Positions 34,571 through 58,851 of a DNA stretch of 64,000 bases are shown piece after piece (position 1 is the first letter of the stretch; every line of letters begins with the position of its first letter). The position numbers and the translations under genes were made by a program. The stretch comes from DASRDR01 sp963812945 [NCBI: uncultured Candidatus Rokubacteria bacterium] (GTDB taxonomy: Bacteria; Methylomirabilota; Methylomirabilia; Rokubacteriales), in NCBI GenBank assembly GCA_963812945.1, contig CAWEXD010000008.1:2294001-2358000 (forward strand), given 5' to 3'. The notes under the pieces are model-generated. The model did not search any database, was not told the origin of the DNA, and saw only the letters and a list, made by a program, of their open reading frames with translations.

Positions 34571-35443
34571 CTAGTTCGGCCGGCGATGCATCTGGACGTG
34601 ACGGTACATCCCGGCCACGTTCAGCGGGAACATGTCCTTGTAGCCGCCCCAGCCCTCGTACTTGGGAAGCTTCACGGTCTGGACGACCTCCTGCTCGGTC
34701 TTGCCTTCGCGGGCGAGCCGGAGCACCTCGGCGTGGAGCTCCTCCATGTACTCGCGGAACGCCCCCACGTCCGCCTTGGTCCCGATCGGCCCGTGGCCGG
34801 GGACGAGCTGGTCGAAATCCATCGCCTCGACGCGCCGGAGCGACTCGATCCAGTCCGCGATGTAGGCGTCGGGCCAGTCGCGGAACCCGACCGCCTTCAC
34901 CGGGATCCAGTCGACGGCGAAGAGGAGACGCTCCTTGGGGAAGCGCATCACGATCGAGTTGTCCGAGTGGTTCCGGCCGACGTGGGAAAGCTCCACCACC
35001 GTCCCCCCCAGCTCGATCGTCATGCGGTCCGAGAACGTGATCTGGGGCACGGCGGTCGGCCGCTTCTCGGCGATGATCGTCCGCCGGGCGTTCTCGTGGG
35101 CCACGAACTGCGCGGTGTCGGCGAAGACCTCTCCGCCGGAGATGTGGTCCGCGTGGTCGTGGCTGTAGACCACGTAGCGGATCGGCTTCCCGAACCGCTG
35201 CGCCACCTCCGCCTTGAGCCAGCGGGCGGCGTCGGCGTTGACCGGGTCGGTGGCGATCACCCCGTCTGGGGTCGCGGCGAGCACCGAGTAATGGAAGTTG
35301 TTCCGGAACCGGTGGACCGAACCCGCGATCGGCGTGATCTCCCGAACCGGAGCCGCGGCCTGAGCCGAGGCGAAACGCGGTCGAAGCGGCAGGAATGCCA
35401 GGCTCAGGCCCCCGCCGAGGATGGCGCGGCGCGTGATCGTCAT
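34571..35443 (-). CDS. Tat-exported metallo-beta-lactamase-fold hydrolase
   Basis: A 290-residue exported protein. The N-terminus has a twin-arginine-like signal (ITRRAILGGGLSLAF) ending near FASAQA. The MBL-fold zinc motif SHDHADH (HxHxDH) is followed by the other ligands in SHVGRNHSDNS, FAVDWIP and VPGHGPIG. GGGAGG-like ribosome-binding sequence (GGGAGG) precedes the ATG. It resembles quinoprotein-associated or SoxH-like zinc hydrolases; the substrate is unknown. It lies between the short-chain dehydrogenase and methyltransferase genes, 115 nt after the former. Confidence 0.88.
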   Translation of the reverse strand: MTITRRAILGGGLSLAFLPLRPRFASAQAAAPVREITPIAGSVHRFRNNFHYSVLAATPDGVIATDPVNADAARWLKAEVAQRFGKPIRYVVYSHDHADHISGGEVFADTAQFVAHENARRTIIAEKRPTAVPQITFSDRMTIELGGTVVELSHVGRNHSDNSIVMRFPKERLLFAVDWIPVKAVGFRDWPDAYIADWIESLRRVEAMDFDQLVPGHGPIGTKADVGAFREYMEELHAEVLRLAREGKTEQEVVQTVKLPKYEGWGGYKDMFPLNVAGMYRHVQMHRRPN

Positions 35444-35558
35444 GGAAGGCCTCCCTCTCGGTGTTCGAACGCTTGTCCACGGCGGCGCTGCGGAACCCGG
35501 CGCCGCCCGTCAGCCGACACTCCTTCAAACCAGCGAGCGCGCCGGGAGGTTCAACCGG

Positions 35559-36353
35559 TCAGTACATCAGGTACCCGCCGTCGACCGTCACGGCTTGCCC
35601 CGTCATGTAGCTGCCGGCCGGCGAGACCAGGAAGACGATGACCCGCGCGATGTCGTCGGGCTCGGCCAGCCGGCCGAGGGGGACGGTCGCCAGGCGCTGC
35701 TTCATGAACTCGCCCGCGGCGAGCCCCTGCTGGCGGACGCCGAGCAGGTCGTCGAGCCGCCAGTTGAAGTCCGTGTCGACGACCCCCGGGCAGATCGCGT
35801 TCACGCGCACCCCGTGGCGAGCCAGGGCCCGCGCCGCCTGCTGCGTGAGCGAGATCACGGCGGTCTTGCTGGCCGCATAGGGCGGCGAGAGACTCCCCGA
35901 GCCGCGGCCGGCGATCGACGAGACGTTGACGATCGCGCCCGAGCCCTGCCCGATCATCACGGGGGCCGCGGTCTGCATGCAGAAGAACAGGCCGCGGGCG
36001 TTGACGGCGAAGGTCTCGTCCCAGTCGCGCTCGGTCACCTGCCCGAAGGGAGTCGGCCGGATGAGTCCCGCGTTGTTCACGAGCACGTCGAGCCGCCCCA
36101 GGCCCTCCGTCACGCGCGCGATCATCCGCTCGATGTCCGGCACCCTCGTCACGTCGGCCGGGACGGCCAGGGCCTTCCGGCCGAGGGCCCGCGCCTCGCC
36201 GGCCACCGAGTCGGCGGCATCCGGGCGGAGGTCGTTCACCGCAACGTCCGCCCCCGCCCGGGCGAGGGCCAGCGCCGTCGCGCGGCCGATCCCCTGCCCC
36301 GCCCCCGTGACGAGAGCGACCTGCCCGGCGAGGTCGCCCGGGCTCTCAGCCAC
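35559..36353 (-). CDS. Short-chain dehydrogenase/reductase
   Basis: A 264-residue classical SDR. The NAD(P)-binding motif is VTGAGQGIGRA (about 15-25), NNAG follows, and the catalytic set is Ser in VNVSSIAG with YAASK. The C-terminus ends VDGGYLMY. Family members reduce 3-oxoacyl-ACPs or oxidise alcohols including dihydrodiols. The GTG start overlaps the DAHP synthase gene by 8 nt, so both are co-translated. Given the neighbouring ACP cluster, a reductase acting on the cluster's intermediate is possible. Confidence 0.92.
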   Translation of the reverse strand: MAESPGDLAGQVALVTGAGQGIGRATALALARAGADVAVNDLRPDAADSVAGEARALGRKALAVPADVTRVPDIERMIARVTEGLGRLDVLVNNAGLIRPTPFGQVTERDWDETFAVNARGLFFCMQTAAPVMIGQGSGAIVNVSSIAGRGSGSLSPPYAASKTAVISLTQQAARALARHGVRVNAICPGVVDTDFNWRLDDLLGVRQQGLAAGEFMKQRLATVPLGRLAEPDDIARVIVFLVSPAGSYMTGQAVTVDGGYLMY

Positions 36354-37416
36354 GCCGCTTCTCCCGGCGCGCGCGCACGGCCTTCGCGAGATCGTCGAGG
36401 ACCGGCAGGGTGTCGTCCCAGCCGAGGCACGCGTCGGTCACGCTCTGACCGTAGACCAGGGGCTGACCGGCGCGGACGTCCTGCCGGCCGCTCACCAGGT
36501 GGCTCTCCACCATCACCCCGAAGACGTGCCGGCCCCCGTCCACGATCTGCGCGGCGATGTCGCGCGCCACCGCGGGCTGACGGGTGTGATCCTTGCCGCT
36601 GTTGCCGTGCGAGCAGTCCACCATCATCCGGGGCGGGAGGCCGGCGCGGACGAGCGACTTGGCCGTCTGCTCGATGTCCTCGGCGTGGTAGTTCGGCCGG
36701 CGGTGCCCCCCGCGGAGGATGACGTGGCAGGCGTCGTTCCCGCGCGTGACGACGATGGCCGCGAGCCCCTGCTTCGTCACCGACAGGAACTGGTGCGGGT
36801 GCATGGCGGCGCGGATCGCGTCAACGGCGATCTGGACGTTGCCGTCGGTGCCGTTCTTGAACCCGACCGGCATCGACAGCCCGGAGGCAAGCTCCCGGTG
36901 GACCTGGCTCTCGGTCGTGCGGGCGCCGATCGCGCCCCACGACACGAGGTCGGCGATGAACTGCGGCGTGATCGTGTCGAGAAACTCGCACCCCGCCGGC
37001 AGGCCCATGTCGGCGAGGCCGAGCAGGAAGCCCCGGGCCAGGCCGAGCCCGTCGTTGATCGCGAAGCTCCCGTCGAGCTTGGGGTCGTTGATGAGCCCCT
37101 TCCACCCGACTGTCGTTCGCGGCTTCTCGAAGTAGACCCGCATGACGAGGAGGAGGTCGTCGGCCAGGCGATCGGCGACGGCCCGGAGGCGCTGGCCGTA
37201 CTCCTGGGCGGCCTGGACGTCGTGGATCGAGCAGGGCCCCACCACGCAGAGCAGCCGGTCGTCCTCGTCTCGAAAGATCCGGTTGATCGCCTCGCGCCCC
37301 TCCGCGACGGTGGTCGAGGCCCGCTCCGTGATCGCGTACTGCTCCATCAGGATGGCGGGGGGGATGAGCGGCCGGAGCCGCTCGATCCGGAGGTCGTCGG
37401 TCGGACGGAGGATCAC
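36346..37416 (-). CDS. 3-deoxy-7-phosphoheptulonate synthase (class I, AroF/G/H type)
   Basis: A 356-residue DAHP synthase, which condenses phosphoenolpyruvate and erythrose 4-phosphate in the first step of aromatic biosynthesis. Characteristic motifs are CVVGPCSIHD, MRVYFEKPRTTVGWKG, FKNGTDGN, LRGGHRRPNY and MVDCSHGNSGKDH. Length and motifs match the E. coli feedback-regulated enzymes. GTG at 37416 opens the protein. A leader of about 110 nt with stem-loops separates it from its candidate promoter. It adjoins the halogenase-like gene on the same strand and may supply that cluster, or serve primary metabolism. Confidence 0.95.
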   Translation of the reverse strand: MILRPTDDLRIERLRPLIPPAILMEQYAITERASTTVAEGREAINRIFRDEDDRLLCVVGPCSIHDVQAAQEYGQRLRAVADRLADDLLLVMRVYFEKPRTTVGWKGLINDPKLDGSFAINDGLGLARGFLLGLADMGLPAGCEFLDTITPQFIADLVSWGAIGARTTESQVHRELASGLSMPVGFKNGTDGNVQIAVDAIRAAMHPHQFLSVTKQGLAAIVVTRGNDACHVILRGGHRRPNYHAEDIEQTAKSLVRAGLPPRMMVDCSHGNSGKDHTRQPAVARDIAAQIVDGGRHVFGVMVESHLVSGRQDVRAGQPLVYGQSVTDACLGWDDTLPVLDDLAKAVRARREKRRG

Positions 37417-37492
37417 GGCGCGCTCTCCGCGTTGATTGGCACGGGTTTACGCCTCCGAGGCTTCCTCGGCGGGTGAGGTTCGCCGATGGCAT

Positions 37493-37517
37493 CGGCCCGA
37501 CCGGGCAGGTCGGGCCG
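37493..37517 (-). promoter_or_regulatory. Stem-loop in the DAHP synthase leader
   Basis: Inverted repeat of ten perfect pairs (CGGCCCGACC) with a 5-nt loop. A second small hairpin (CCGAGG-AAG-CCTCGG) occurs further along the leader. There is no T-run, and no leader peptide rich in aromatic residues. It could be an attenuator-like element or a terminator for the upstream cluster. Confidence 0.35.
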
Positions 37518-37525
37518 TCGCCTCG

Positions 37526-37555
37526 ACTATAGGGGGTAGGCCCGGCCAGCCGCAA
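37526..37555 (-). promoter_or_regulatory. Candidate promoter of the DAHP synthase-SDR pair
   Basis: On the minus strand TTGCGG (37555-37550), 18 nt, TATAGT (37531-37526). The -10 matches five of six consensus bases, one of the best in the window. The -35 overlaps the stem-loop after the halogenase-like gene, so transcription from upstream could interfere. Confidence 0.38.
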
Positions 37556-37561
37556 GCGGCT
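37548..37561 (-). terminator. Small stem-loop after the halogenase-like gene
   Basis: AGCCGC-TT-GCGGCT, six perfect pairs, begins 6 nt after the stop codon of the halogenase-like gene. There is no T-tract, so termination would be weak or Rho-assisted. It also overlaps the next promoter. Confidence 0.3.
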
Positions 37562-37567
37562 TGGACG

Positions 37568-38887
37568 CTACCGGATCGCCAGCGTGACGGGGTCGACGCC
37601 CCGTAGCCCGTGACGACCGAGGAGCCGGAGCAGGCCGCGGCTGTAGGGGGAGGTCGTGGCGGCTCCACTCGCCAGCAGTCCCACGTGGCGCTCGATGTGA
37701 CGCTGTGCCGCCCGCTTGACGGCGCTCGGGTTGCCCGACATCCACGCGCGCCCGGCCCTCATGAGGGCCGCCAGGCGGCCGTCGTAGAGGTAGTCGACCA
37801 GCTCCCGCCATGCGATCAGCATGGCGGTCTGGATCGCCGCGTAGGAGTCGAGCGCCGTGCTCAGCTCGGCCGCGGACACGGAGCCGCGGCGCCGAAGGAA
37901 GGGACCAATGGATTCCGCCACCAGCTCGGCCGAACGCAAGGCGAGAAAAACCCCCGGGGAGAGCATTGGATCGACGAAGCCGAACGCGTCCCCGATCATC
38001 ACCCACCCGGGCCCATGGCCGCGCTGGGACGTGAGCTGGTAGTTGGCGTAGGTGGCCACGCCCGTCACGCGAGTCCCTCCGCCGACGACGGAGCGGAGCC
38101 AGGGGTCGGTCGCGATGGCCCGCTCGAGCCGCTCCTCCGGACTGCGTCCAAGCTCTCCGGCGTCGTCCTGCCCGAGCACGATCCCCACCGAAAGGCGATC
38201 CTCGAGGGGGATGCACCAGCTCCATCCCGCCGGACCGCGCGCGATGAGCACCTGCCCCGGCGCATCATCCCAGCGGAAGCCCGTGAAGTGGGCGAAGTGC
38301 GCCACGTCCTTGCGTGGCCCGAGGTCGGCGCGAATCCCCAGCGCGCGAGCCGCATGGCGCGCCCGGCCCGTCGCGTCGACGATCAGGTCGGGCTGGCGGC
38401 CATCGAGGGACGGCGCCGCCGCGAGCGTCTCGGGGGCCAGGATGAGCTCCGCGCCGGTGCCGTCCGACGCGGGCTCGAGCCGAGCGCGGCCGACGACGTG
38501 GTGCACCCCGGCCGCGAGCGCCCGGTCACGGAGCGCTTCGTCGAAACGTGGGCGCGGAATGTTGTAGGCGTACGGGAACACGGCAGGGGCGAAGCGACTG
38601 AACGTGAAGCCGAAGCGGTCGGTCGGGGACCAGACGAACGACACCCCGGGCTTGACGCGACTGAAGAGCGCCGTGTCCCGCTCGACGCCGAGTCGCTGGA
38701 GGATCGGGGTCACGGCCGGCACGAGCGACTCCCCGACCAGGAGCTCCGGGCGCCGATCCTCGTCGAACAGGGTGACGTCGGCCCCCTCGCGAGCCAGGAG
38801 CGCCGACAGGGCCGAGCCGGACGGACCCGCCCCGATGATGGCCACTCGGAGGCGGCCGGCTCCATCCGGTCGGCGTCGATGCGTCAC
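37568..38887 (-). CDS. Flavin-dependent halogenase-like FAD protein
   Basis: A 439-residue FAD enzyme with the hallmarks of flavin-dependent halogenases. The dinucleotide motif is IIGAGPSG (about 17-24), VGESLVP follows at 51-57, and a lysine at about 79 (SRVKPGVSFVW) sits where halogenases have their catalytic lysine. The diagnostic WxWxIP appears as GWSWCIP (222-227), and GFVDPMLSPG (about 303-312) matches the FxxPxxSxG halogenase motif. Such enzymes chlorinate or brominate aromatic or carrier-bound substrates with FADH2. Chemistry here is inferred: some homologues are hydroxylases or lack activity, and geranylgeranyl-reductase-like proteins share the fold. The start is GTG 38887, 19 nt after the ligase stop. 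No dedicated flavin reductase gene is adjacent. Confidence 0.8.
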   Translation of the reverse strand: MTHRRRPDGAGRLRVAIIGAGPSGSALSALLAREGADVTLFDEDRRPELLVGESLVPAVTPILQRLGVERDTALFSRVKPGVSFVWSPTDRFGFTFSRFAPAVFPYAYNIPRPRFDEALRDRALAAGVHHVVGRARLEPASDGTGAELILAPETLAAAPSLDGRQPDLIVDATGRARHAARALGIRADLGPRKDVAHFAHFTGFRWDDAPGQVLIARGPAGWSWCIPLEDRLSVGIVLGQDDAGELGRSPEERLERAIATDPWLRSVVGGGTRVTGVATYANYQLTSQRGHGPGWVMIGDAFGFVDPMLSPGVFLALRSAELVAESIGPFLRRRGSVSAAELSTALDSYAAIQTAMLIAWRELVDYLYDGRLAALMRAGRAWMSGNPSAVKRAAQRHIERHVGLLASGAATTSPYSRGLLRLLGRHGLRGVDPVTLAIR

Positions 38888-38906
38888 GCTCGCGCCTCCG
38901 TGAGCC

Positions 38907-40415
38907 TCACGGGCCAGACGCGCGACCGGCGGGCACCCGCGCGGCGATGGTCGCGGGGCGACGGAGGATCTTGCCTCCCGCCGTCTTGGCGATCGCCGCC
39001 ACCACCCCGAGGTCAACCGGCACCTTGTGGGAGGACAGGACGCGAGCGCAGTGTCTCCTGAGGCCGTCCAGATCGCAGTCGGGGGAATCGAGGACGATCT
39101 CGGCTCGAGGGACCTCGCCGAGGCGGGCGTGGGGGTAGCCGTACACCCGAGACTCCCTGACTCCCGGGAACCCGTTGATGCAGACCTCGACCTCCTCCGG
39201 GAAGAACTTGAGCCCGCCCACGAAGATGACGCTCTTCTTGCGACCCTCGAGGTGGAGGGCCCCGGCGCCGTCGATGCGCCCGACGTCCCCCGTGAGGAAC
39301 CAGCCTGCCCGCAGCACCTCGGTGCGAAGCCGCCAGGGGGTGTAGTAGGCGGAGAAGAGGCCGGCGCCCCGGAGCGCGACCTCGCCGGTTGCGCCAGCGG
39401 GCAGCGCGGCGCCAGACTCGCCGAGCACGCTGAGCTCATACCCCGGGGTCACGCGACCCACGGACGTGGCGGCCAACCCGTCGGCGGGGAGGTTGATGCA
39501 CGGCAGGCCGGCCTCGATGATCCCGTACGCCTGGGCGACGGGCACGCCCTGGACCGCCTCGAAGCGCTCCATGACCGCTGGCGTGATGGGAGCGCTGGTC
39601 GACAGCGCCAGCCGGAGGCTCTCGAGCGGCCCGGCCGGAGGAAGGTTGGCCAGACGCTCGAAGTGGAGGGGCGAGGCGTAGAAGACCGTGGCCCGAAATC
39701 CTCGAATCGCGGAGGTCACGCTCCCGGGCAGGGTGTCGGGACAGAGCAGGATGTGGGCCCCGGCCCGAACGTACGCCACGATGGTCACCGCGAAGTGGTA
39801 CGCCAGCGGCAAGGTCCACAGGATGCGGTCGTCGTCGGTGAAGCGAAGCACGCGGTCCGCGGCCTCGACCCGGGCGAGGGTGCCCTCGTGGGAGAGGACG
39901 ACGCCCTTCGCGTCTGCCGTGGTACCCGATGTGAAGCGGATGAAGGCGGGGCGGAGGCTTGCGAACCCCGCCGGGCCCTCGGCGTCCCGATTCACCCACT
40001 CGAACGCGAAGCCAGTGCAGGCGCCGCCGCCGAGGAGCGCGCGGCGACCCGAGGCAGGCAGAGGCTCCGCGCGGGGCCACGCGAAGCATCCGTTCACGTC
40101 GACCTCACGCAGGATCTCCGACGTCTCGGTCGGCGTGAGGCTCTCGGCCACGGGTACGAGGCAGGCGCCCGTCTCGAGGAGACCGAAGGCCGCCGGGAGG
40201 TAGGCGAGCGCATTCGGTGCCCGCAGTCCTATCCGCTGGCCCGGCTGGACGCCCCGGTCCCTCAGAAACTCCGCGACACGCCCCGCCTCGTTCGCGAGCT
40301 CGCCGTAGGTCAGCGTCTGCCCGGAGCGCACGTCCGTCACTGCCGGCCGGTGCGGCTGCCGCACGGCCGTGGCGCCCAGGAGATCCGCGAGGTTCATCGC
40401 GCGCGCCGCGCTCAT
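38907..40415 (-). CDS. AMP-forming acyl/aryl ligase (acyl-ACP ligase type)
   Basis: A 502-residue ANL-superfamily adenylating enzyme. It shows FIRFTSGTTADAKG (about 158-171), YGIIEAGLPC, TGDVGRIDGAGALHLEGRKK in pieces (TGD near 375) and the C-terminal lysine motif KTAGGKILRR (about 476-485). It activates a carboxylic acid as its adenylate and loads it on a thiol, here most likely the carrier protein encoded at 42977. The ATG overlaps the FAD oxidoreductase stop in ATGA. The Ala/Ile-rich substrate pocket does not allow a confident acid to be named. Confidence 0.9.
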   Translation of the reverse strand: MSAARAMNLADLLGATAVRQPHRPAVTDVRSGQTLTYGELANEAGRVAEFLRDRGVQPGQRIGLRAPNALAYLPAAFGLLETGACLVPVAESLTPTETSEILREVDVNGCFAWPRAEPLPASGRRALLGGGACTGFAFEWVNRDAEGPAGFASLRPAFIRFTSGTTADAKGVVLSHEGTLARVEAADRVLRFTDDDRILWTLPLAYHFAVTIVAYVRAGAHILLCPDTLPGSVTSAIRGFRATVFYASPLHFERLANLPPAGPLESLRLALSTSAPITPAVMERFEAVQGVPVAQAYGIIEAGLPCINLPADGLAATSVGRVTPGYELSVLGESGAALPAGATGEVALRGAGLFSAYYTPWRLRTEVLRAGWFLTGDVGRIDGAGALHLEGRKKSVIFVGGLKFFPEEVEVCINGFPGVRESRVYGYPHARLGEVPRAEIVLDSPDCDLDGLRRHCARVLSSHKVPVDLGVVAAIAKTAGGKILRRPATIAARVPAGRASGP

Positions 40416-41629
40416 CGCCCCGCAGCTTGGCTCGCGGCCGCCCGCCCGACGGCCTCGCCAGTGGCGAGGCACGTCCCGATCACGCGGGCGGAGCCCAGCG
40501 CATCGTGCGTCGCGCTCATGCAGCGCCCGGCCACGAAGAGGTTGTCCAGATCCCGCGCCCGGAGGCTCCGGAGCGGGATCTCGTAGACCCGGTCGTCCTC
40601 CGGGTACTCGTAGATCGCCCCCATGCGCCCTTCTTCCCAGAGCTCGATGGGCCAAGCCGCCCGCGCCACGCCGTCGTCGAACCGGCGGCCGCCCAGCACA
40701 TCCTCGCGGGTGAGCTGATACTGACCGATCACCCTCCGGCTCTCGCGCACACCGACCTGGGGGGCCGCATGGGAGAGGAAGGCACCCGCGAACGGGGGCA
40801 GCGTCTTGAGAAACTCGGTGACGGCGAGGGCGCGTCGCCGTCCTTCCTGCTCCGCCACCGTCAGGAGATCACGCACACGCGCATCCGTGAGACCGCCGAG
40901 CGCAAGCTTGCAGACGAGCTCGCCGGGCTGCGGCGACATCCCCATTTGGAGGTTGGAGGCCCCGGCCGGCAGGCGACCCGCTCGCTCGGCAGCGACCAGC
41001 GCCCGCAGGAGCCCGACGCGATGCCCGGGCTCCAGGGCTTCCGGGGCCACTCCCTGGAGGACGAACACGAGCGACAGAAGCTGCCGATCGGACACCGGGG
41101 CCGTCTCCGTCGCCGCGCCGGCGTGGTGAGCGACGATGGCGTCGCCGCTCGTGTCGACGACGGTCGCCGTCCTGAGCTCGACGGTGCGCTCCCAGGTCGC
41201 GACACGCAGCGCCTCGATCCGCCCGCCGGCGGTCTCGACCCCGACCAAGTAGGCGTGGAGGTAGACGTCGAGGCCCGGGGCCTCGGCGACGAGCTCGTCC
41301 GACAGGCACGCGAAGGCGAACGGCGTGTAGGGCAGCACGAAGGTCCGTCCGCGACGGATCGGCTTCTCGCAGCCCGGCATGCCGGACAGCCGCCGGGCGA
41401 ACTCCTCGGGGAAGCCGTCGTTGAGCGGCTCGGGCGGCCCGGACGACGCCGCGCGGTAGAGCCCGCAGACCGTGCTCACCATGCCGGCGGTGGCCATGCC
41501 TCCGAGGAAGCCATAGCGCTCGACCAGGGCCGTCCGCGCGCCGGCTCCGGCCGCCGCCACGGCGGCGGCGAGCCCCGAGGCTCCGCCGCCCACGACGACG
41601 ATGTCGTAGCTCAGGGCGGCGTGCGCCAT
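40412..41629 (-). CDS. FAD-dependent oxidoreductase (FAD_oxidored family)
   Basis: A 405-residue flavoprotein. GGGASG (residues 14-19) in VVVGGGASGLAAAVAAAGAGA binds FAD, followed by VERYGFLGGMATAGMVSTVCG, typical of the FAD_oxidored (PF12831-like) family. The C-terminal part has LDNLFVAGRCMSATHDALGSARVIGTCLATGEAVG, the usual second FAD contact. Substrates of the family are diverse. It overlaps the condensation-type gene by 19 nt and the ligase gene by 4 nt, which ties it firmly to the carrier-protein cluster, perhaps as a dehydrogenase acting on the tethered acid. Confidence 0.88.
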   Translation of the reverse strand: MAHAALSYDIVVVGGGASGLAAAVAAAGAGARTALVERYGFLGGMATAGMVSTVCGLYRAASSGPPEPLNDGFPEEFARRLSGMPGCEKPIRRGRTFVLPYTPFAFACLSDELVAEAPGLDVYLHAYLVGVETAGGRIEALRVATWERTVELRTATVVDTSGDAIVAHHAGAATETAPVSDRQLLSLVFVLQGVAPEALEPGHRVGLLRALVAAERAGRLPAGASNLQMGMSPQPGELVCKLALGGLTDARVRDLLTVAEQEGRRRALAVTEFLKTLPPFAGAFLSHAAPQVGVRESRRVIGQYQLTREDVLGGRRFDDGVARAAWPIELWEEGRMGAIYEYPEDDRVYEIPLRSLRARDLDNLFVAGRCMSATHDALGSARVIGTCLATGEAVGRAAASQAAGR

Positions 41630-42921
41630 CCCATGCCTTCGGCGACTCCCTCGATGATGCCCGTCACCTCGTCCTCGCTCACCACGCCCTCAACCCATGA
41701 CACCACCAGGTTGCTCCGCCCCCCGCAGCGGTTGAAGAACACGCCGATGCCCGGGCGGGCAGGCATGGCCGGCACGTGGTACGCGTTGACGACGCGGCGA
41801 TCGAAGCATCGATCGAGGGATGCCGGGAAATCCATCACGTCCGCGCAGTTGAAGGAGAAGGTCTCGCCGCGCTTCGTCCAGGGCAGGTCGCGCAGGATCG
41901 TACGGACGGGGCGGTACCGGAGGAACTCCATGGCCACCTCGTTGGCCTCGATCTGTCCATCGCGCATCGCCTCGGCCATCTGGCGGCGCAAAGCGCAGGC
42001 CAGACCCGCGAGGTCAGCGGTGTCGGACGGCCGGAACCGGACGAAGTGGAATGCGAGCAGATTCCCGAAGGTGGGCCCGGAGTCACCCTTCGGACGAAGA
42101 TCGACACCGATGGGGAGCAGGAACGGCACGTCCGGGAGGCCTCGCTGCGCCCAGAGCTTTGCCATGGCCCGGCCGACGACCGCGAGGCGCCAGGAGATCT
42201 CCCGATCCTGCTGCCGGGCGCCGTTCCCATCCGCGTCCACGAAAGTCTCGCATCGGAAGCGAGCCTGCCCCAGCGCAATGCCTGCCCGACCTGGGGACAC
42301 CGGAGGCACGGGCGCCAGGGTCTTCATGTACGCGAGGCTCCTCCGCGCGATCCGCCCGCGCTCCCTCAGAGGCCGCCGATCTTCGAGCGGCACGAAGGCC
42401 GGAGGGATCGCGCCCCAGGGCGCCTCTCCCACGTGGCGGTCCAGGTGGCAGAGATGCGTCAGGAGATTCTGGCCGCCGCGCGGATCCATCAGAGGATGGA
42501 ACCAGGTCAGGACCAGCACGCCGCGCGTCGACGATGGGTCCCCCCCGTCGAGGAGCAATACACGCATGGGGGTGTCGCGCTCTGGGTCGATAGGGGTGTC
42601 GAGCTCGCCGGTGAGCGCGCGGTGAAGCTCCGCCGGGGCCGCGACGACACCGCGACGGACCGGCGGGCGAGCCAGGATCTCCCGAGAACCGGCAGCCCAG
42701 TGCAGCCGCCCCCAGGGAAACGGTCGGCGGAGCCGAGCGCTCGGCCACGGGCACACATCGAGGAACCGGTCGAGAGCGCGATCGACCCGCTCAGGGTCGA
42801 TCGGGCCGTCGCATTCGACTACCAGGAGGGCGTTGCTGCTGCGGCTGCCTCTGGCGTGCAGTCCCATCAGGACGAGGTCGGGCCCACGGAGGGAGAGACG
42901 ACGTGGCAGTCTTCGACTCAT
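41611..42921 (-). CDS. Stand-alone condensation/acyltransferase-type enzyme
   Basis: A 436-residue member of the condensation-domain/WS-DGAT-like acyltransferase superfamily. The catalytic motif HHxxxDG appears as FHPLMDPRG (141-149): the second His (142) and the Asp (146) are kept, the first His is Phe. Upstream it has PMRVLLLDGGDPS and, later, a channel-lining hydrophobic region (PFLLPIGVDLRPKG) and a C-terminal GIGVFFNRCGG segment. These enzymes form an amide or ester by moving an acyl group from a carrier thioester to an amine or alcohol. It overlaps the FAD oxidoreductase gene. The family is recognised from the motif and layout; identity to known members looks low. Confidence 0.72.
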   Translation of the reverse strand: MSRRLPRRLSLRGPDLVLMGLHARGSRSSNALLVVECDGPIDPERVDRALDRFLDVCPWPSARLRRPFPWGRLHWAAGSREILARPPVRRGVVAAPAELHRALTGELDTPIDPERDTPMRVLLLDGGDPSSTRGVLVLTWFHPLMDPRGGQNLLTHLCHLDRHVGEAPWGAIPPAFVPLEDRRPLRERGRIARRSLAYMKTLAPVPPVSPGRAGIALGQARFRCETFVDADGNGARQQDREISWRLAVVGRAMAKLWAQRGLPDVPFLLPIGVDLRPKGDSGPTFGNLLAFHFVRFRPSDTADLAGLACALRRQMAEAMRDGQIEANEVAMEFLRYRPVRTILRDLPWTKRGETFSFNCADVMDFPASLDRCFDRRVVNAYHVPAMPARPGIGVFFNRCGGRSNLVVSWVEGVVSEDEVTGIIEGVAEGMGWRTPP

Positions 42922-42976
42922 AGGTCACACGGCGCCGGCCGGCCCGGCGCGGGCCCGGACACGCCGAAGGAGTGGC

Positions 42977-43321
42977 TTAGGCCAGAGTCATCCGGCGGGA
43001 CACGTAGCCCGCCAGACAACGGAGGGACGAGACGTTCTCGGCCCGGAGATCCGCGTCAGGCATCCAGAACCCGAACTCGGCCTCGACGAAGAGCAGGATC
43101 TTCAGCAGTCCCATGGAGTCGACGCCGGCCGCTTCGAGGTCGTCGTCCTGCCGGATCGGGCGGTTCCGAGCCATGACCTGCGTGTTGGCGAAGGCCACGA
43201 GCCTGAGGGCGACGGCGTCGGCATCGCAGGACGACCGGGGCGCGGGCAGCGGCCCGACGAAGCGCGAGTCGCGCTCGGCGTCCTCGATCTTGAGCTCGGA
43301 CCAAGGTGCTCGCCCCGACAC
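42977..43321 (-). CDS. Acyl carrier protein-like protein with N-terminal extension
   Basis: A 114-residue carrier protein. The core DDLEAAGVDSMGLLKILLFVEAEFGF (about 60-85) has the phosphopantetheine serine in GVDSM (Ser69) and the usual helix-2 pattern. About 35 extra residues precede the first helix (GRAPWSELKIEDAERDSRF). The GTG at 43321 lies 8 nt after a good -10, so the mRNA should be leaderless. This is the first gene of the five-gene cluster with condensation enzyme, FAD oxidoreductase, ligase and halogenase-like enzyme, and probably carries the intermediate between them. Confidence 0.87.
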   Translation of the reverse strand: MSGRAPWSELKIEDAERDSRFVGPLPAPRSSCDADAVALRLVAFANTQVMARNRPIRQDDDLEAAGVDSMGLLKILLFVEAEFGFWMPDADLRAENVSSLRCLAGYVSRRMTLA

Positions 43322-43329
43322 GGCCCGTA

Positions 43330-43359
43330 ACGATACCCCTGGCGACGCTCCCGGGTCAA
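43330..43359 (-). promoter_or_regulatory. Promoter of the carrier-protein cluster, leaderless
   Basis: On the minus strand TTGACC (43359-43354), 18 nt, TATCGT (43335-43330), then 8 nt to the GTG at 43321. Five of six and four of six consensus bases match. It faces the divergent LOG-family gene. Confidence 0.5.
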
Positions 43360-43422
43360 CCTGCCCAAACTCCCCGCCCGAGCCCTTCCGACGCGGGCGG
43401 GCGGGAGGCCCCCTCGCCGCCG

Positions 43423-43451
43423 TTGCCCCGCGTGTCCGCGGGGGGGATCAT
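43423..43451 (+). promoter_or_regulatory. Candidate promoter of the LOG-family gene
   Basis: TTGCCC, 17 nt, GATCAT (43446-43451), then 7 nt to ATG 43459. If right, the ATG at 43450 lies within the -10 and the shorter protein is made. Confidence 0.3.
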
Positions 43452-43458
43452 GGGGCCC

Positions 43459-44223
43459 ATGTGGTTCGGCCGAAGAGCCCGTGACGCGGACTGGGGCAAG
43501 ACCCCCGGGGCGGCGGAGGAGATCCGGTTCCTCCAGGGCCCGCAGCGGCGGAGCTTCGAGCTCCGGCGGGCGATCCGGATCTTCTTCGAGTTCCTGCGCG
43601 GCTTCCGGACCCTCCACTTCGTGGGGCCGTGCGTCACGGTGTTCGGATCGGCCCGCTTCCCGGAGACGCACCCCTACTACGTCGTCGCCCGGCAGCTCGG
43701 CGCGCGTCTCGCGCGCGCGGGCTTCACGGTCATGACCGGCGGTGGACCGGGGATCATGGAGGCGGCGAACCGGGGCGCGCGGGAGGCCGGAGGGCGCTCG
43801 GTCGGCTGCAACATCGAGCTGCCGCAGGAGCAGCGCCCGAACCCCTATCTCGACCGGTGGATCACCTTCGAGCACTTCTACGTGCGCAAGGTGATGCTGG
43901 TGAAGTACTCCTACGCGTTCGTGGCGCTCCCCGGCGGGTTCGGCACGCTGGACGAGATCTTCGAGACCGCGGTGCTGATCCAGACGGGCAAGATCCGCGA
44001 CTTCCCGCTGATCCTCATGGGCCAGGAGTTCTGGCAGCCGCTCCTCGATTTCGTGGACACGCGGCTCGTGCGCGAGGGCACCGTCGACCCGGCCGATATC
44101 AAGCGGCTGACCGTCACGGACTCGGTCGACGAGGCGGTGACGGCGATCCTGGACGCCGCGACACGCCGGTTCGGGCTCAGCTACCACACGCCGGTCAAGC
44201 GGCGGTGGTTCCTCGGAGAGTGA
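43459..44223 (+). CDS. LOG-family protein (TIGR00730; putative nucleoside-monophosphate phosphoribohydrolase)
   Basis: A 254-residue Rossmann-like protein of the LOG/YvdD-type family, whose members cleave the ribose-base bond of nucleotide monophosphates (including cytokinin nucleotides). The diagnostic motifs TGGGPGIMEAANRGA and LPGGFGTLDEIFE are both present, with TVFGSARF at the first strand. An N-terminal helical extension of about 55 residues precedes the core. The start is ATG 43459 by promoter spacing; ATG 43450 adds three residues. Divergent from the carrier-protein cluster. Confidence 0.92.
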   Translation: MWFGRRARDADWGKTPGAAEEIRFLQGPQRRSFELRRAIRIFFEFLRGFRTLHFVGPCVTVFGSARFPETHPYYVVARQLGARLARAGFTVMTGGGPGIMEAANRGAREAGGRSVGCNIELPQEQRPNPYLDRWITFEHFYVRKVMLVKYSYAFVALPGGFGTLDEIFETAVLIQTGKIRDFPLILMGQEFWQPLLDFVDTRLVREGTVDPADIKRLTVTDSVDEAVTAILDAATRRFGLSYHTPVKRRWFLGE

Positions 44224-56451: not shown

Positions 56452-57144
56452 TCACGCCTCGTCCATCGTGAGCTGGAGGCGGTGCCGGGCGAGCACCGCG
56501 TCGCCTGCCACGCCGTGGCCGGTCAGGGTGGCGGGCTTGAAGTAGCGGTCGGCGATCGCGTCGGAGAACCCGGCCCCGCCCGTCTCGACGAGCAGCACCC
56601 ACGGCCACGGCTCCTCGCCCTTGGCCACCTCGCCGCCCTTGAGCTTCCCTTCGGCCGTCTTGACCTGCGTGACCGCCGGGACCGTGCTCAAGAGGTGGAC
56701 GCCGATCACGCCGGTCTCGTCGAGGAGGGCGGCCGGCGCCGTCTCGCGGAGCCACCGCTCGACCGCCGCCTCGCGCCCGGGCTCGGGTCGCGCCCGGAGC
56801 GTCAAGAGCCCGCCCCCCTGCCCGCGCCCGGTCGTCAGCGCGATCCGGCAGCCGAGCCGGACCGTGTTCCGGAAGTGCGGCAGGACGCGCTTCGTCCAGT
56901 CGGTCGGGAAGTTCAGGCGCAGCACGTATCCCGCGCTCCGGACCGTCTCGACGCTGTCGGTCTCGTAGACGTCGAGGTACTCGCGCGGCCGCTCGGAGCT
57001 GTCGTACCGCCGCCCGCGCAGGAACCCCGGGATGCCGACACGCTCCGCGACGTGCTCCCGGTCGTGCCAGCGAATCATCTCGAGGTCCCCGTCCGGAGTC
57101 ATGCCGTGCCAGATGATGAGGACGCCCTGCCCGATCAACGCCAT
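56452..57144 (-). CDS. HDR-x-H protein (EthD/DUF4286-like), copy A
   Basis: A 230-residue protein made of two similar-looking halves. The first has IWHGMTPDGDLEMIRWHDREHVAERVGIPGFLRGRRY, with the WHDRxH motif found in dimeric alpha/beta-barrel proteins of the EthD/DUF4286 type. ATG 57144. It overlaps copy B (57135-57842) by 10 nt and is its downstream neighbour. Function not known; the barrel fold often binds small aromatic or oxygenated compounds. The family assignment is tentative. Confidence 0.75.
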   Translation of the reverse strand: MALIGQGVLIIWHGMTPDGDLEMIRWHDREHVAERVGIPGFLRGRRYDSSERPREYLDVYETDSVETVRSAGYVLRLNFPTDWTKRVLPHFRNTVRLGCRIALTTGRGQGGGLLTLRARPEPGREAAVERWLRETAPAALLDETGVIGVHLLSTVPAVTQVKTAEGKLKGGEVAKGEEPWPWVLLVETGGAGFSDAIADRYFKPATLTGHGVAGDAVLARHRLQLTMDEA

Positions 57145-57842
57145 TTCGGGTCTCCTCGCTCGGGGTCGATGCTGATCTGGAGCTGGTACGCGGTGCCCCC
57201 GCGCAGCTCGGCGCCGGCGACCCGGAGGCTCTCCGGGGCGAGCGGGCCGGCGCGGAGCTCGGTGAGAACCGCCGCGTCGTCCGCCTCCACGAGGAGGCAC
57301 CACGGGTCGACGGCGCCCCGGTCCCGGTCGCCCGGGCCCCGAAGCCGCTTCTCCTCGGTGGCGATGCTCGTGACGTCGGGCGTCGCGTCGAGCACATGGA
57401 TCGCCACGACGCCGGTCACGTCCTCGACCGAGGCGAGACTCGCGGCGGTGAGCGCCGGCGGCCGATCCACCGACCCGCCGGCGGGGCCGAGCCTGAGCGT
57501 CAGGAGGACGCCGCCCTGCCCGCGACCCGTGCTGGCCGCCACCCGGTAGCCGACGCGCAGCGTGTCGCGAAAGTGTGGGACCATCCGGCGCGTCCAGGGC
57601 GTGGGATCGTTCAGCCGGGCGAGGTAGGAAGCGCTCCTGAGCGTCTCCGGGTCCTCCACCTCGTAGAAGTCGAGATAGTCGAGCGAGCGCTCGAGGCTCC
57701 GATAGCGTCGCCCGCGCAGGAACCCCGGCACGCCCACCCGCTCGGGGATGTGCTGGCGGTCGTGCCAGCGCCAGTACTCCGACTCACCTTCAGGCGTGAT
57801 CGTGTGCCAAATCGCGAGCACGCCCTGTCCCAGGAGTGGCAT
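57135..57842 (-). CDS. HDR-x-H protein (EthD/DUF4286-like), copy B
   Basis: A 235-residue paralogue of copy A, with IWHTITPEGESEYWRWHDRQHIPERVGVPGFLRGRRYRS and the shared TGRGQGGVLLTLR block (TGRGQGGGLLTLR in copy A). About half of the positions in the N-terminal part agree, so this is an old tandem duplication. The two may form a heterodimer. ATG 57842. It starts 31 nt after the LLM oxidoreductase gene, so oxidoreductase and pair form one operon. Confidence 0.75.
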   Translation of the reverse strand: MPLLGQGVLAIWHTITPEGESEYWRWHDRQHIPERVGVPGFLRGRRYRSLERSLDYLDFYEVEDPETLRSASYLARLNDPTPWTRRMVPHFRDTLRVGYRVAASTGRGQGGVLLTLRLGPAGGSVDRPPALTAASLASVEDVTGVVAIHVLDATPDVTSIATEEKRLRGPGDRDRGAVDPWCLLVEADDAAVLTELRAGPLAPESLRVAGAELRGGTAYQLQISIDPERGDPKWR

Positions 57843-57873: not shown

Positions 57874-58851
57874 TCACGGGGCCACGGCCTCGAGCGTCCC
57901 GCGTGCGTGCGGGGCCTCGGGCGGGCCGATCGGCCGGACGACCGGCAGCGTGACGCCAGCCGCCCGGTACGCCTCGACCTCGGCCCGGACGCGGCGCGCG
58001 TCGCCGACCGATCCGAGCGCGTCGACGAGGGCGCCCGGCACGGCGTCCGCGTCGCGTCCCGGTCCGCGGTCCCGGTCGAAGGCAGACAGCGCGTCGGCGA
58101 AGCCGCTCGCCCGGAACATGGCCCGGTAGTACGGGAGCGAGAGATAGCGGACCAGCTCCTCCCGGAACAGCCGCGTGACCCCCGCCCGATCCTCGGTGAC
58201 GGCGAGCGGTACCGCGGCAACGATCTCGAACCCCTCGAGCGGCTTCCCCGCCCGCGCGCGGCCCCGCGCGAGCGCGGGCAGGGCGACGTCTCGGACGTAC
58301 GCCGGGGAGCAGAGCCAGAGCACGACTCCGTCGGCGAGCTCGCCGGCCAGCTCCAGCATCGGCGGCGCGAGGCCGGCGAGAAGGACCGGCGGCGCGGGCG
58401 CCCGGAACGCGCCCGTCCAGCGGACGCGATAGTAGCGCCCCTGGAAGCTCGCCTGGCCCTCGAGCGCTGCCCGCAGCACGGCCACGTACTCCCGGATCAC
58501 GGCGAGCGGCTCGCCCATGTCGAGACCGAGCGCGTCCACCATCGAGGGGCGGTGGCTCAGCCCGATACCGAGTCGGAGGCGGCCGCTCGACACCTCCATG
58601 AGGGTCGACGCTTCCTGGGCCATGACCACCGGATGGCGGGGGTAGATCGGCACGACGCCGGTTCCGAGCCCGATGCGCTCCGTCGCGCACGCGTACGCCG
58701 CCAGGACGACGAAGCCGTCCCGCCCGAGCCCGTGGGTCAGCCACACGCTGTCGTAGCCGAGAGACTCGGCGCGCCGCGCCAGGTCCACCGTGGTGGCGAG
58801 ACGGTCGCGAGGCGAGAGGTACGCGCCGAGGCGTCGCGCGGAGCCGGTCAC
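57874..58851 (-). CDS. LLM-class flavin-dependent oxidoreductase (F420-type)
   Basis: A 325-residue luciferase-like TIM-barrel enzyme. It contains RRAESLGYDSVWLTHGLGRD, RIGLGTGVVPIYPRHPVVMAQEASTLMEVSSGRLRLGIGLSH in pieces and PPVLLAGLAPPMLELAGELADGVVLW. This is the MSMEG_0879-like F420-dependent branch. It is clearly distinct from the LLM gene at 28987. It is the first gene of the operon with the two HDR-x-H proteins, which may bind its product or substrate. A divergent Liv operon lies upstream. Confidence 0.9.
   Translation of the reverse strand: MTGSARRLGAYLSPRDRLATTVDLARRAESLGYDSVWLTHGLGRDGFVVLAAYACATERIGLGTGVVPIYPRHPVVMAQEASTLMEVSSGRLRLGIGLSHRPSMVDALGLDMGEPLAVIREYVAVLRAALEGQASFQGRYYRVRWTGAFRAPAPPVLLAGLAPPMLELAGELADGVVLWLCSPAYVRDVALPALARGRARAGKPLEGFEIVAAVPLAVTEDRAGVTRLFREELVRYLSLPYYRAMFRASGFADALSAFDRDRGPGRDADAVPGALVDALGSVGDARRVRAEVEAYRAAGVTLPVVRPIGPPEAPHARGTLEAVAP

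What the first reader, a model, noticed from the sequence alone, without database searches (positions are those of the whole stretch)
35559..43321. Compact carrier-protein cluster with ligase, two flavoproteins including a halogenase-like enzyme, and a condensation-type transferase
Five tightly spaced genes (gaps or overlaps of at most 55 nt) encode a carrier protein, a stand-alone condensation-type enzyme, an FAD_oxidored protein, an AMP-forming ligase and an FAD protein with GxGxxG, WxWxIP (GWSWCIP) and FxxPxxSxG (FVDPMLSPG). They are followed by DAHP synthase and a short-chain dehydrogenase. Seen: gene order, overlaps and motifs. Known: halogenases of this type act on carrier-tethered or free aromatics, and a bmp-like logic joins ligase, carrier, oxidase and halogenase. 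Inferred: the cluster makes a halogenated or oxidised acyl (probably aryl) compound that the condensation enzyme transfers to an amine or alcohol. I do not recognise this exact set as a described pathway.
Basis: partly seen in the sequence, partly recalled or inferred. Interest (0 to 1): 0.85.

Follow-up and report, generated by a model that had tools for sequence, protein, structure and literature searches.

The report
Rokubacterial carrier-protein operon with halogenase-like flavoenzyme
Uncultured soil bacteria share a small, apparently undescribed set of genes that probably loads an acid onto a carrier protein, oxidises or halogenates it there and hands it on, perhaps to a lipid; the product is unknown.

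Summary
The five genes are real, tightly packed and conserved: carrier protein (ACP), condensation-fold enzyme (C), FAD_oxidored protein (FADox), AMP-ligase (LIG), halogenase-like flavoprotein (HAL). C occurs in 14 of 95 Methylomirabilota/Rokubacteria genomes, 19 copies, always in genomes with HAL. Seven copies are a C-HAL pair without FADox or LIG; in the two genomes with only that pair, the ligase genes lie elsewhere (G057 ACP-FADox-LIG, G058 a cut FADox-LIG). FADox is optional. The DAHP synthase and short-chain dehydrogenase are not conserved.

ACP-C-FADox-LIG also occurs without HAL in two small unnamed phyla, beside a B12 radical-SAM gene or a ketosynthase pair. An LpxL-type acyltransferase accompanies it there (2 genomes) and in three Rokubacteria genomes, hinting at a lipid product.

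C has the condensation fold; best match AzeD dehydratase. HAL keeps the halogenase motifs and lysine and does not sit inside any supported GG-reductase-like clade, but its halide loop reads S-P-G, removing one of two halide-binding NH groups. Halogenation is likely, not shown. New variant of a known kind.

The parts
42977..43321 (-). ACP: stand-alone carrier protein with GVDSM phosphopantetheine site; the true start may lie further in
   Evidence: PP-binding 23.4 bits, cut-off 20.8; GxDSM..LK in 13 of 13 ACPs called; most homologues have a shorter N-terminus
41611..42921 (-). C: stand-alone condensation-domain-fold enzyme with HPLMD(P/A)RG motif
   Evidence: no Pfam/NCBIfam hit at E 0.01; model pLDDT 71, pTM 0.78; VIA-align Z 28.1 to AzeD 8s6l, about 24 to NRPS C domains; profile hit to TlmII E 0.0035; H142, D146, G149 invariant also in distant homologues
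40412..41629 (-). FADox: FAD_oxidored flavoprotein, optional member
   Evidence: PF12831 305 bits; no close orthologue in four of the genomes with the long-type operon
38907..40415 (-). LIG: AMP-forming acyl/aryl-acid ligase
   Evidence: PF00501 219 bits, PF13193 37 bits; SGTT...KG, TGD and GKI motifs in 13 of 13 LIGs called
37568..38887 (-). HAL: flavin-dependent-halogenase-like enzyme (GxGxxG, WSWCIP, FVDPMLSPG, lysine 79)
   Evidence: PF04820 72 bits; best PDB hits halogenases; own clade 99/100
36346..37416 (-). DAHP synthase, downstream neighbour, not a conserved member
   Evidence: TIGR00034 529 bits; no hit at 20 related loci
35559..36353 (-). Short-chain dehydrogenase, neighbour, not a conserved member
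   Evidence: PF13561 221 bits; one weak hit in 20 related loci; 35% identical to a FabG-like gene near HAL in G086
43330..43359 (-). Only sigma-70-like promoter match in 35300-43600, directly upstream of ACP; weak
   Evidence: 1 found, mean 0.1 in shuffles; of 20 operon starts scanned only the window and, at another place, L006 have a match

Best explanation
A compact specialised-metabolism operon that works on a carrier-bound acid. Shown: adjacent genes conserved as a unit, their families, motifs and the fold of C. Inferred: (1) LIG adenylates a small, probably aromatic, acid and loads it onto the phosphopantetheine arm of ACP; (2) HAL, with FADH2 from an outside reductase and O2, oxidises halide to hypohalous acid, which lysine 79 delivers to the tethered ring (a hydroxylation is the fallback reading); (3) in most but not all lineages FADox adds a further oxidation; (4) C joins the modified acyl group to an amine or alcohol, or dehydrates it; (5) in many relatives a methyltransferase acts as well, and in a few an LpxL-type acyltransferase may attach the product to a lipid. 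DAHP synthase and SDR are neighbours in this genome only.
For: Synteny: nine loci mapped, further copies. C in 14 of 95 genomes of the phylum, 19 copies. HAL orthologues (63-78% identity) in 15 of 388 genomes, 20 copies; the next matches are a broken 57% remnant and then 38% (at most four candidates scored per genome). All 14 C genomes have HAL; the one HAL genome without C (G086) begins at a contig edge just before LIG. Spacing of neighbouring operon genes -19 to +109 nt, except in the broken G008 and G057 copies (207, 282, 822). Natural split: G057 has C-HAL at one place and ACP-FADox-LIG at another; G058 has C-HAL and a contig-edge FADox-LIG. C and HAL trees agree that the C-HAL pairs have one origin (SH-aLRT 97 and 99). 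HAL: halogenase motifs; lysine aligned with five solved halogenases; top PDB hits are halogenases. C: condensation fold. Outside the phylum ACP-C-FADox-LIG stays together.
Against: No substrate, product or activity is known. Pro311 precedes Gly312 in the halide loop in 20 of 20 HAL rows; the published halide site is two backbone NH groups (PMC7336383, passages), so one is lost. The best structural match of C is a dehydratase, C lacks the first His of HHxxxDG and has D-x-R-G for D-G. ACP, C, FADox and LIG also occur without HAL beside them in two other phyla (tblastn of HAL on six such loci: none). Seven C-HAL pairs have no ligase beside them (in G058 the contig ends before an ACP could be seen). 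G008 C and HAL and G057 HAL look broken. p47_phox_C scores as well as PapA_C on some C proteins (7 of 18, best E 0.0015). Flavin reductase, transporter and regulator genes were not searched for.
Confidence: 0.5

Rival explanations
1. HAL is a flavin monooxygenase, not a halogenase: it hydroxylates the carrier-bound acid, as QhpG (a dihydroxylase with the halogenase fold) hydroxylates its substrate. The operon makes an oxidised acyl conjugate with no halogen.
For: Best NCBIfam hit is QhpG (119 bits), ahead of CmlS (110); invariant S-P-G, where five solved halogenases and 16 motif-bearing paralogue rows (15 different) have S, T, A, G or Q before the Gly; long stem branch 1.74; UbiE-like methyltransferase neighbour, a family that often acts on hydroxylated rings (recalled).
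Against: QhpG cut-off 240 not reached; the QhpG crystal sequence 7ctq scores 30 bits or 33 with the profile against 149/166 for halogenase 8zop; WxWxIP, thought to prevent monooxygenation (PMC12871659, passages), and the lysine are conserved.
Confidence: 0.3
2. C is a modifying condensation-fold enzyme (a dehydratase, as AzeD and AmbE-CmodAA are called), so the unit tailors a tethered beta-hydroxy acyl group and release is done elsewhere. Not exclusive of the other readings.
For: AzeD is the top structural match by a clear margin (Z 28.1 against 24.4; Foldseek E 3.7e-18 against 3.0e-15) and AmbE-CmodAA is second in Foldseek.
Against: Condensing and ester-forming members also score Z 20-24 (CDA C domain, PCP-C didomain 8g3j, WS/DGAT, PapA5, SgcC5); identity to AzeD is 16%; the only sequence hit under E 0.01 is TlmII. 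A shared fold shows no function.
Confidence: 0.3
3. The operon serves a lipid: it prepares an aryl (or other) starter or head group for an aryl-polyene- or ladderane-like lipid, HAL decorates it and an LpxL-type acyltransferase attaches it. Not exclusive of the best explanation. I raised this from 0.2 after searches showed acyltransferases at Rokubacteria loci too.
For: LpxL-type acyltransferase (PF03279 86-99 bits) with a second methyltransferase near HAL in G005, G008 and G086, plus a FabG-like reductase in G008 and G086 (79% identical to each other). In G312, G396 and G397 the module follows ACP-KS-KS', with an LpxL-type gene in G312 and G396; in G115 and G394 it follows a B12 radical-SAM gene, TIGR04072 'lipid biosynthesis', 608 bits over cut-off 360 in G115.
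Against: The G086 acyltransferase finds no homologue at the other Rokubacteria loci searched, nor in the window; no relative of the two ketosynthases or the radical-SAM protein in 20 Rokubacteria loci at E 1e-5. C is only 18-24% identical between the phyla.
Confidence: 0.3
4. Independent neighbours that happen to be adjacent, HAL being an ordinary geranylgeranyl-reductase-type enzyme.
For: GG-red-SF scores 83 bits; support for the motif-less rows as one group apart from HAL is weak (22/56).
Against: Cut-off 158.8 not reached; HAL is its own clade (99/100) and in none of the starred GG-red-like clades; order conserved at 57-67% identity of C; parts kept in the split genomes.
Confidence: 0.02

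Closest known systems
Carrier-tethered flavin-dependent halogenase clusters (bmp, pyoluteorin plt, clorobiocin; variant B FDHs)
   Same: AMP-ligase plus carrier plus FAD halogenase-type enzyme in a small gene set (cluster contents recalled; variant B defined in PMC8407142, passages)
   Different: No acyl-CoA-dehydrogenase-type oxidase (recalled as part of bmp/plt); FADox of PF12831 instead, sometimes missing; a stand-alone condensation-fold enzyme; S-P-G halide loop
SgcC5 and TlmII, free-standing condensation enzymes
   Same: Same fold; SgcC5 Z 20.2, TlmII profile E 0.0035 across the HxxxD region
   Different: 11-16% identity in the structural alignments; below Pfam detection; encoded beside ligase and ACP
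AzeD dehydratase (PDB 8s6l)
   Same: Best structural match, Z 28.1, rmsd 3.5 over 372 residues
   Different: 16% identity; neighbourhoods not compared; no paper on its structure recognised in the library
QhpG flavoprotein dihydroxylase
   Same: Halogenase fold; best NCBIfam hit of HAL
   Different: Below cut-off (119 of 240); QhpG's loop residues are given as Ser269-Asn271, which by my reading lacks the motif Gly (PMC7876137, passages)
Aryl-polyene/flexirubin- or ladderane-type lipid clusters
   Same: Ligase and ACP with LpxL-type acyltransferase, methyltransferase and FabG-like reductase at some Rokubacteria loci; KS pair or TIGR04072 radical SAM in other phyla; likeness to aryl polyenes is recalled, not tested
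   Different: No ketosynthase found at 20 Rokubacteria loci; the G086-type acyltransferase and second methyltransferase were not found in the window

Membership tests
Two-component flavin-dependent halogenase (PF04820-like) | GxGxxG flavin-binding motif | tested here: met
   18 of 20 HAL rows; L009 and L054 are fragments without that region
Two-component flavin-dependent halogenase (PF04820-like) | WxWxIP | tested here: met
   19 of 20 rows; the exception L054 is a fragment
Two-component flavin-dependent halogenase (PF04820-like) | FxxPxxSxG | tested here: met
   20 of 20 rows
Two-component flavin-dependent halogenase (PF04820-like) | Active-site lysine | tested here: met
   K79 invariant in 14 of 14; pattern in 17 of 20 rows, L059 keeps the lysine with a variant pattern, L009 and L054 do not cover it; aligned with the lysine column of five solved halogenases; that this is the catalytic column is recalled
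Two-component flavin-dependent halogenase (PF04820-like) | Halide site of two backbone NH groups at and before the motif Gly | tested here: inconclusive
   Residue before the Gly is Pro in 20 of 20 rows, so one NH is missing; effect unknown
Two-component flavin-dependent halogenase (PF04820-like) | Halogenating activity | not testable with these tools
   needs bench work
Geranylgeranyl reductase superfamily (TIGR02032) | Curated score cut-off 158.8 bits | tested here: not met
   83.1 bits; other HAL copies 72-93 bits
Geranylgeranyl reductase superfamily (TIGR02032) | Place inside the family in a tree | tested here: not met
   own clade 99/100, in none of the starred GG-red-like clades; deeper order unresolved; of the rows only L085 and L089 reach the family cut-off
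QhpG (NF049967) | Curated cut-off 240 bits | tested here: not met
   119.2 bits
NRPS condensation-domain superfamily | Two-lobed condensation fold | tested here: met
   the model has pLDDT 71, so moderate
NRPS condensation-domain superfamily | HHxxxDG motif | tested here: inconclusive
   Second His and Asp kept; first His replaced (F or C in Rokubacteria, D outside) and Gly two residues later (D-x-R-G or D-x-H-G)
NRPS condensation-domain superfamily | Pfam condensation model hit | tested here: not met
   None listed up to E 1 in 18 members; PapA_C 13 of 18 (best 0.0013) and p47_phox_C 7 of 18 (best 0.0015); PapA_C is below its cut-off in P0004
bmp/plt-type tethered pyrrole or phenol halogenation clusters | Ligase, carrier and FDH-type enzyme together | tested here: met
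bmp/plt-type tethered pyrrole or phenol halogenation clusters | Acyl-CoA-dehydrogenase-type oxidase (recalled) | tested here: not met
   FADox is PF12831 with no acyl-CoA-dehydrogenase hit
Aryl-polyene-type lipid clusters | Ketosynthase(s) beside ligase and ACP (recalled) | tested here: not met
   no relative of the two G312 ketosynthases in 20 Rokubacteria loci; present beside the module in G312, G396, G397

The most novel reading that the evidence does not exclude
ACP-C-FADox-LIG is an old, portable acyl-tailoring module of uncultured phyla whose catalytic partner is swapped by lineage: a B12 radical-SAM enzyme or a ketosynthase pair in two low-GC, small-genome phyla, an O2-using halogenase-fold enzyme in soil Rokubacteria, with lipid attachment in several of them. 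HAL would be a new carrier-bound enzyme class whose proline-blocked halide loop marks either a new halide site or a switch from halogenation to oxygenation.
Probability: 0.15. Interest if true: 0.75.

Novelty: new variant of a known kind. Interest (0 to 1): 0.5.

Why it matters
Rokubacteria are common in soil and, as far as I recall, uncultured, and I know of no characterised metabolite from them; this is a gene set small enough to express whole. It gives a clean test of whether the standard halogenase motifs predict halogenation when the halide loop carries a proline, and it shows a condensation-fold family that Pfam does not detect. The natural split and the optional FADox say which parts are essential.

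Tried and rejected
Geranylgeranyl-reductase reading of HAL: rejected. DAHP synthase and SDR as core genes: rejected for lack of conservation. C on plasmids: none; HAL on plasmids: 76 records, all under 60% identity, not followed. Whole genome of the window: not held. First fold model of C (18 close homologues, pLDDT 52): top 50 matches were condensation-domain structures and relatives but TM only 0.24-0.28, so it was replaced by the model built with distant homologues. Profile of close homologues against PDB: only two chance-level hits. Conserved promoter before the operon: 2 of 20 starts have a match, at different places. Rfam: nothing in the window. Substrate prediction from LIG: top PDB hits range over feruloyl-, malonyl- and fatty-acyl ligases, no decision possible. 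Papers: Rokubacteria with halogenase, 0; the gene combination, 0; 8ZOP, 0; FxxPxxSxG spelt that way, 0; Rokubacteria with biosynthetic gene clusters, 21, of which one was opened and holds no 'halogen'; AzeD structure, none recognised. These searches, in an open-access library, are the only basis for 'undescribed'. antiSMASH was not available. Profile and relatives searches scored at most four candidates per genome, so more distant homologues may be missed. Rows dropped: HAL under 300 aa (L054) from the tree, and L076 from its C tree; from the tree, eight HAL copies and the other one search hits whose frame was not found or was under 330 residues (L084, L093).

Papers seen: passages only of PMC7876137, PMC7298704, PMC12871659 (also outline), PMC7336383, PMC8407142, PMC9821293, PMC2649909, PMC10880069; all others in search listings only.

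Full report
What is there. On the minus strand of the window lie ACP (43321-42977), C (42921-41611), FADox (41629-40412), LIG (40415-38907) and HAL (38887-37568), followed by a DAHP synthase and an SDR. Family searches give PP-binding, FAD_oxidored, AMP-binding and Trp_halogenase above their cut-offs; C hits nothing.

Origin and distribution. The close relatives of C found in 84,980 species genomes are nine loci, all from Candidatus Rokubacteria (that scan finds close relatives only). In whole genomes of that phylum, 14 of 95 have C, in 19 copies. HAL orthologues (63-78% identity) occur in 15 of 388 genomes, 20 copies; below them come a broken 57% remnant in G004 and then 38%. All 14 C genomes carry HAL. 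The fifteenth HAL genome, G086, has LIG-HAL at a contig edge.

Architectures. Twelve copies are of the long type, ACP-C-(FADox)-LIG-HAL; eight of these have FADox (in G007 inferred from two contig ends) and four do not (G004, G008, G054, G055). Whole-genome search of those four finds no close FADox orthologue (best 35-39% in three, none at E 1e-20 in G008). Seven copies are a C-HAL pair with no FADox or LIG (G002, G003, G004, G006, G054, G057, G058); no ACP stands before six of them, and in G058 the contig ends too soon to tell. Five of these genomes also have the long type. In the other two the missing parts are elsewhere: G057 has ACP-FADox-LIG at C115; G058 has FADox-LIG at C97, cut by the contig end, and a further FADox piece at C314. 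Trees of C (24 rows) and HAL (23 rows) both put the C-HAL pairs in one group (SH-aLRT 97 and 99); the window's HAL is sister to them (94, not starred) though its operon is of the long type, and its C is unplaced. Splitting, with the parts kept, is the strongest evidence that these proteins work together.

Neighbours. Convergent to HAL, 9-239 nt away, 12 of 19 related loci carry a UbiE-like methyltransferase (PF01209 117.6 bits for the L001 copy; 131 and 114 bits against the TIGR01934 cut-off of 158 for two copies). It also stands beside ACP-FADox-LIG in G057. The window lacks it; its own methyltransferase at 34495-33878 is only 30-40% similar over part. In G005, G008 and G086 an LpxL-type acyltransferase (PF03279) and a second methyltransferase lie near HAL, and in G008 and G086 also a FabG-like reductase. 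The acyltransferase is about 30% identical to those beside the module in G312 and G396, and was not found at the other loci searched or in the window.

Beyond the phylum. A profile of C found two distant homologues, and further ones in their phyla: 2 of 9 genomes and 4 of 5; panels of 386 and 385 genomes added none. These loci show ACP-C-FADox-LIG in the same order with no HAL in the stretches read: after a B12 radical-SAM gene in G115 and G394, and after ACP-KS-KS' in G312, G396 and G397, with an LpxL-type acyltransferase in G312 and G396. G397 and G398 have an extra gene between FADox and LIG, and G398 is cut by its contig before ACP. FADox of G312 and G396 is a more distant subfamily (29-31% to the window's). 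LIG is 34-38% identical to the window's, C 18-24%.

What C is. A model made with the distant homologues reaches pLDDT 71 and pTM 0.78. The matches listed by Foldseek are condensation-domain structures, and VIA-align adds related acyltransferases; first is AzeD dehydratase (Z 28.1, rmsd 3.5, 372 residues), then NRPS condensation domains (about 24), wax ester synthase (22.1), PapA5 (21.9), SgcC5 (20.2). A sequence profile weakly hits TlmII (E 0.0035). His142, Asp146 and Gly149 are invariant. So it is a condensation-fold enzyme; whether it condenses or dehydrates is open.

What HAL is. Its best solved relatives are halogenases (8zop 149 bits, CmlS 111, 3e1t 103; the names CndH and Mpy16 for 3e1t and 5buk are recalled). 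The lysine lines up in all five printed alignments. In a 40-row tree HAL is one clade (99/100) and in none of the starred GG-reductase-like clades, but the motif-less rows hold together weakly (22/56), HAL's place among halogenase-type clades is unresolved, its stem is long, and several long branches warn against reading more. Against halogenation: 20 of 20 HAL rows read S-P-G, whereas the five solved halogenases used and 16 motif-bearing paralogue rows (15 different) have another residue before the Gly. The halide site is described as two backbone NH groups, though the same paper notes doubt whether it is the working site (PMC7336383, passages); proline has no NH. I put halogenation at about 0.55 and oxygenation at about 0.3.

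How it probably works. LIG activates an acid and loads ACP; HAL modifies it on the carrier; FADox adds an optional oxidation; C transfers or dehydrates; a methyltransferase acts in many lineages and an LpxL-type acyltransferase in a few. Only the gene set, order, motifs and folds are shown; every catalytic step is inferred. The lipid reading was raised to 0.3; it does not exclude the main one.

Known or new. The logic (ligase, carrier, flavin halogenase) is known from bmp- and plt-type clusters (recalled), but the partner set, a condensation-fold family without a Pfam hit, and the optional PF12831 enzyme differ. No paper pairing Rokubacteria with halogenase was found, nor one with this combination, in an open-access library. 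Verdict: a real, conserved, apparently undescribed operon; new variant of a known kind; interest 0.5.

Broken copies. G008 C is in two pieces with a TGA reported and its HAL is in two pieces; G057 HAL is in two pieces with a TAG reported; G004 holds a HAL remnant with three TAG. Assembly error cannot be told from decay.

Noticed in passing
L061 6286-7638 (G115) and L074 9568-10920 (G394): B12-binding radical-SAM protein of TIGR04072 (608 bits for the L061 copy; the L074 copy is 95% identical) directly upstream of ACP-C-FADox-LIG; possible functional counterpart of HAL
   Followed up: partly
L062, L075, L077 (G312, G396, G397): Two ketosynthases and a second ACP in order before the module, with an LpxL-type acyltransferase in L062 and L075; looks like a lipid or aryl-polyene-like cluster
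   Followed up: partly
L136 3591-6534 (G086), L138 12428-15351 (G008), L137 4862-7283 (G005): LpxL-type acyltransferase plus a 400-residue methyltransferase, with a FabG-like reductase in the first two, near HAL; in L137 a 93-residue product with GLDSLD lies between them and could be a carrier protein (by eye only)
   Followed up: partly
L092, L096, L100 and L095, L099/L114, L112, L113, L116, L120: Methylomirabilota genomes carry at least two further flavoprotein clades with complete halogenase motifs; link to this operon not examined
   Followed up: no
L003, L050-L053: Near the C-HAL pairs an amidase-like family (c5) and a luciferase-like family (c10) recur in these five loci (names by eye); may be genome synteny only
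   Followed up: no
window 56452-57144 and 57135-57842: Two overlapping genes whose products begin alike (GQGVL.IWH..TP.G), apparently a tandem duplication
   Followed up: no
window 58387-58471: tRNA-Ser call with anticodon ACT inside a predicted protein-coding gene, probably a false positive
   Followed up: no
window 43359-43330: Single promoter-like match ending 8 nt before the ACP GTG, which would make the message leaderless if that start is right
   Followed up: partly
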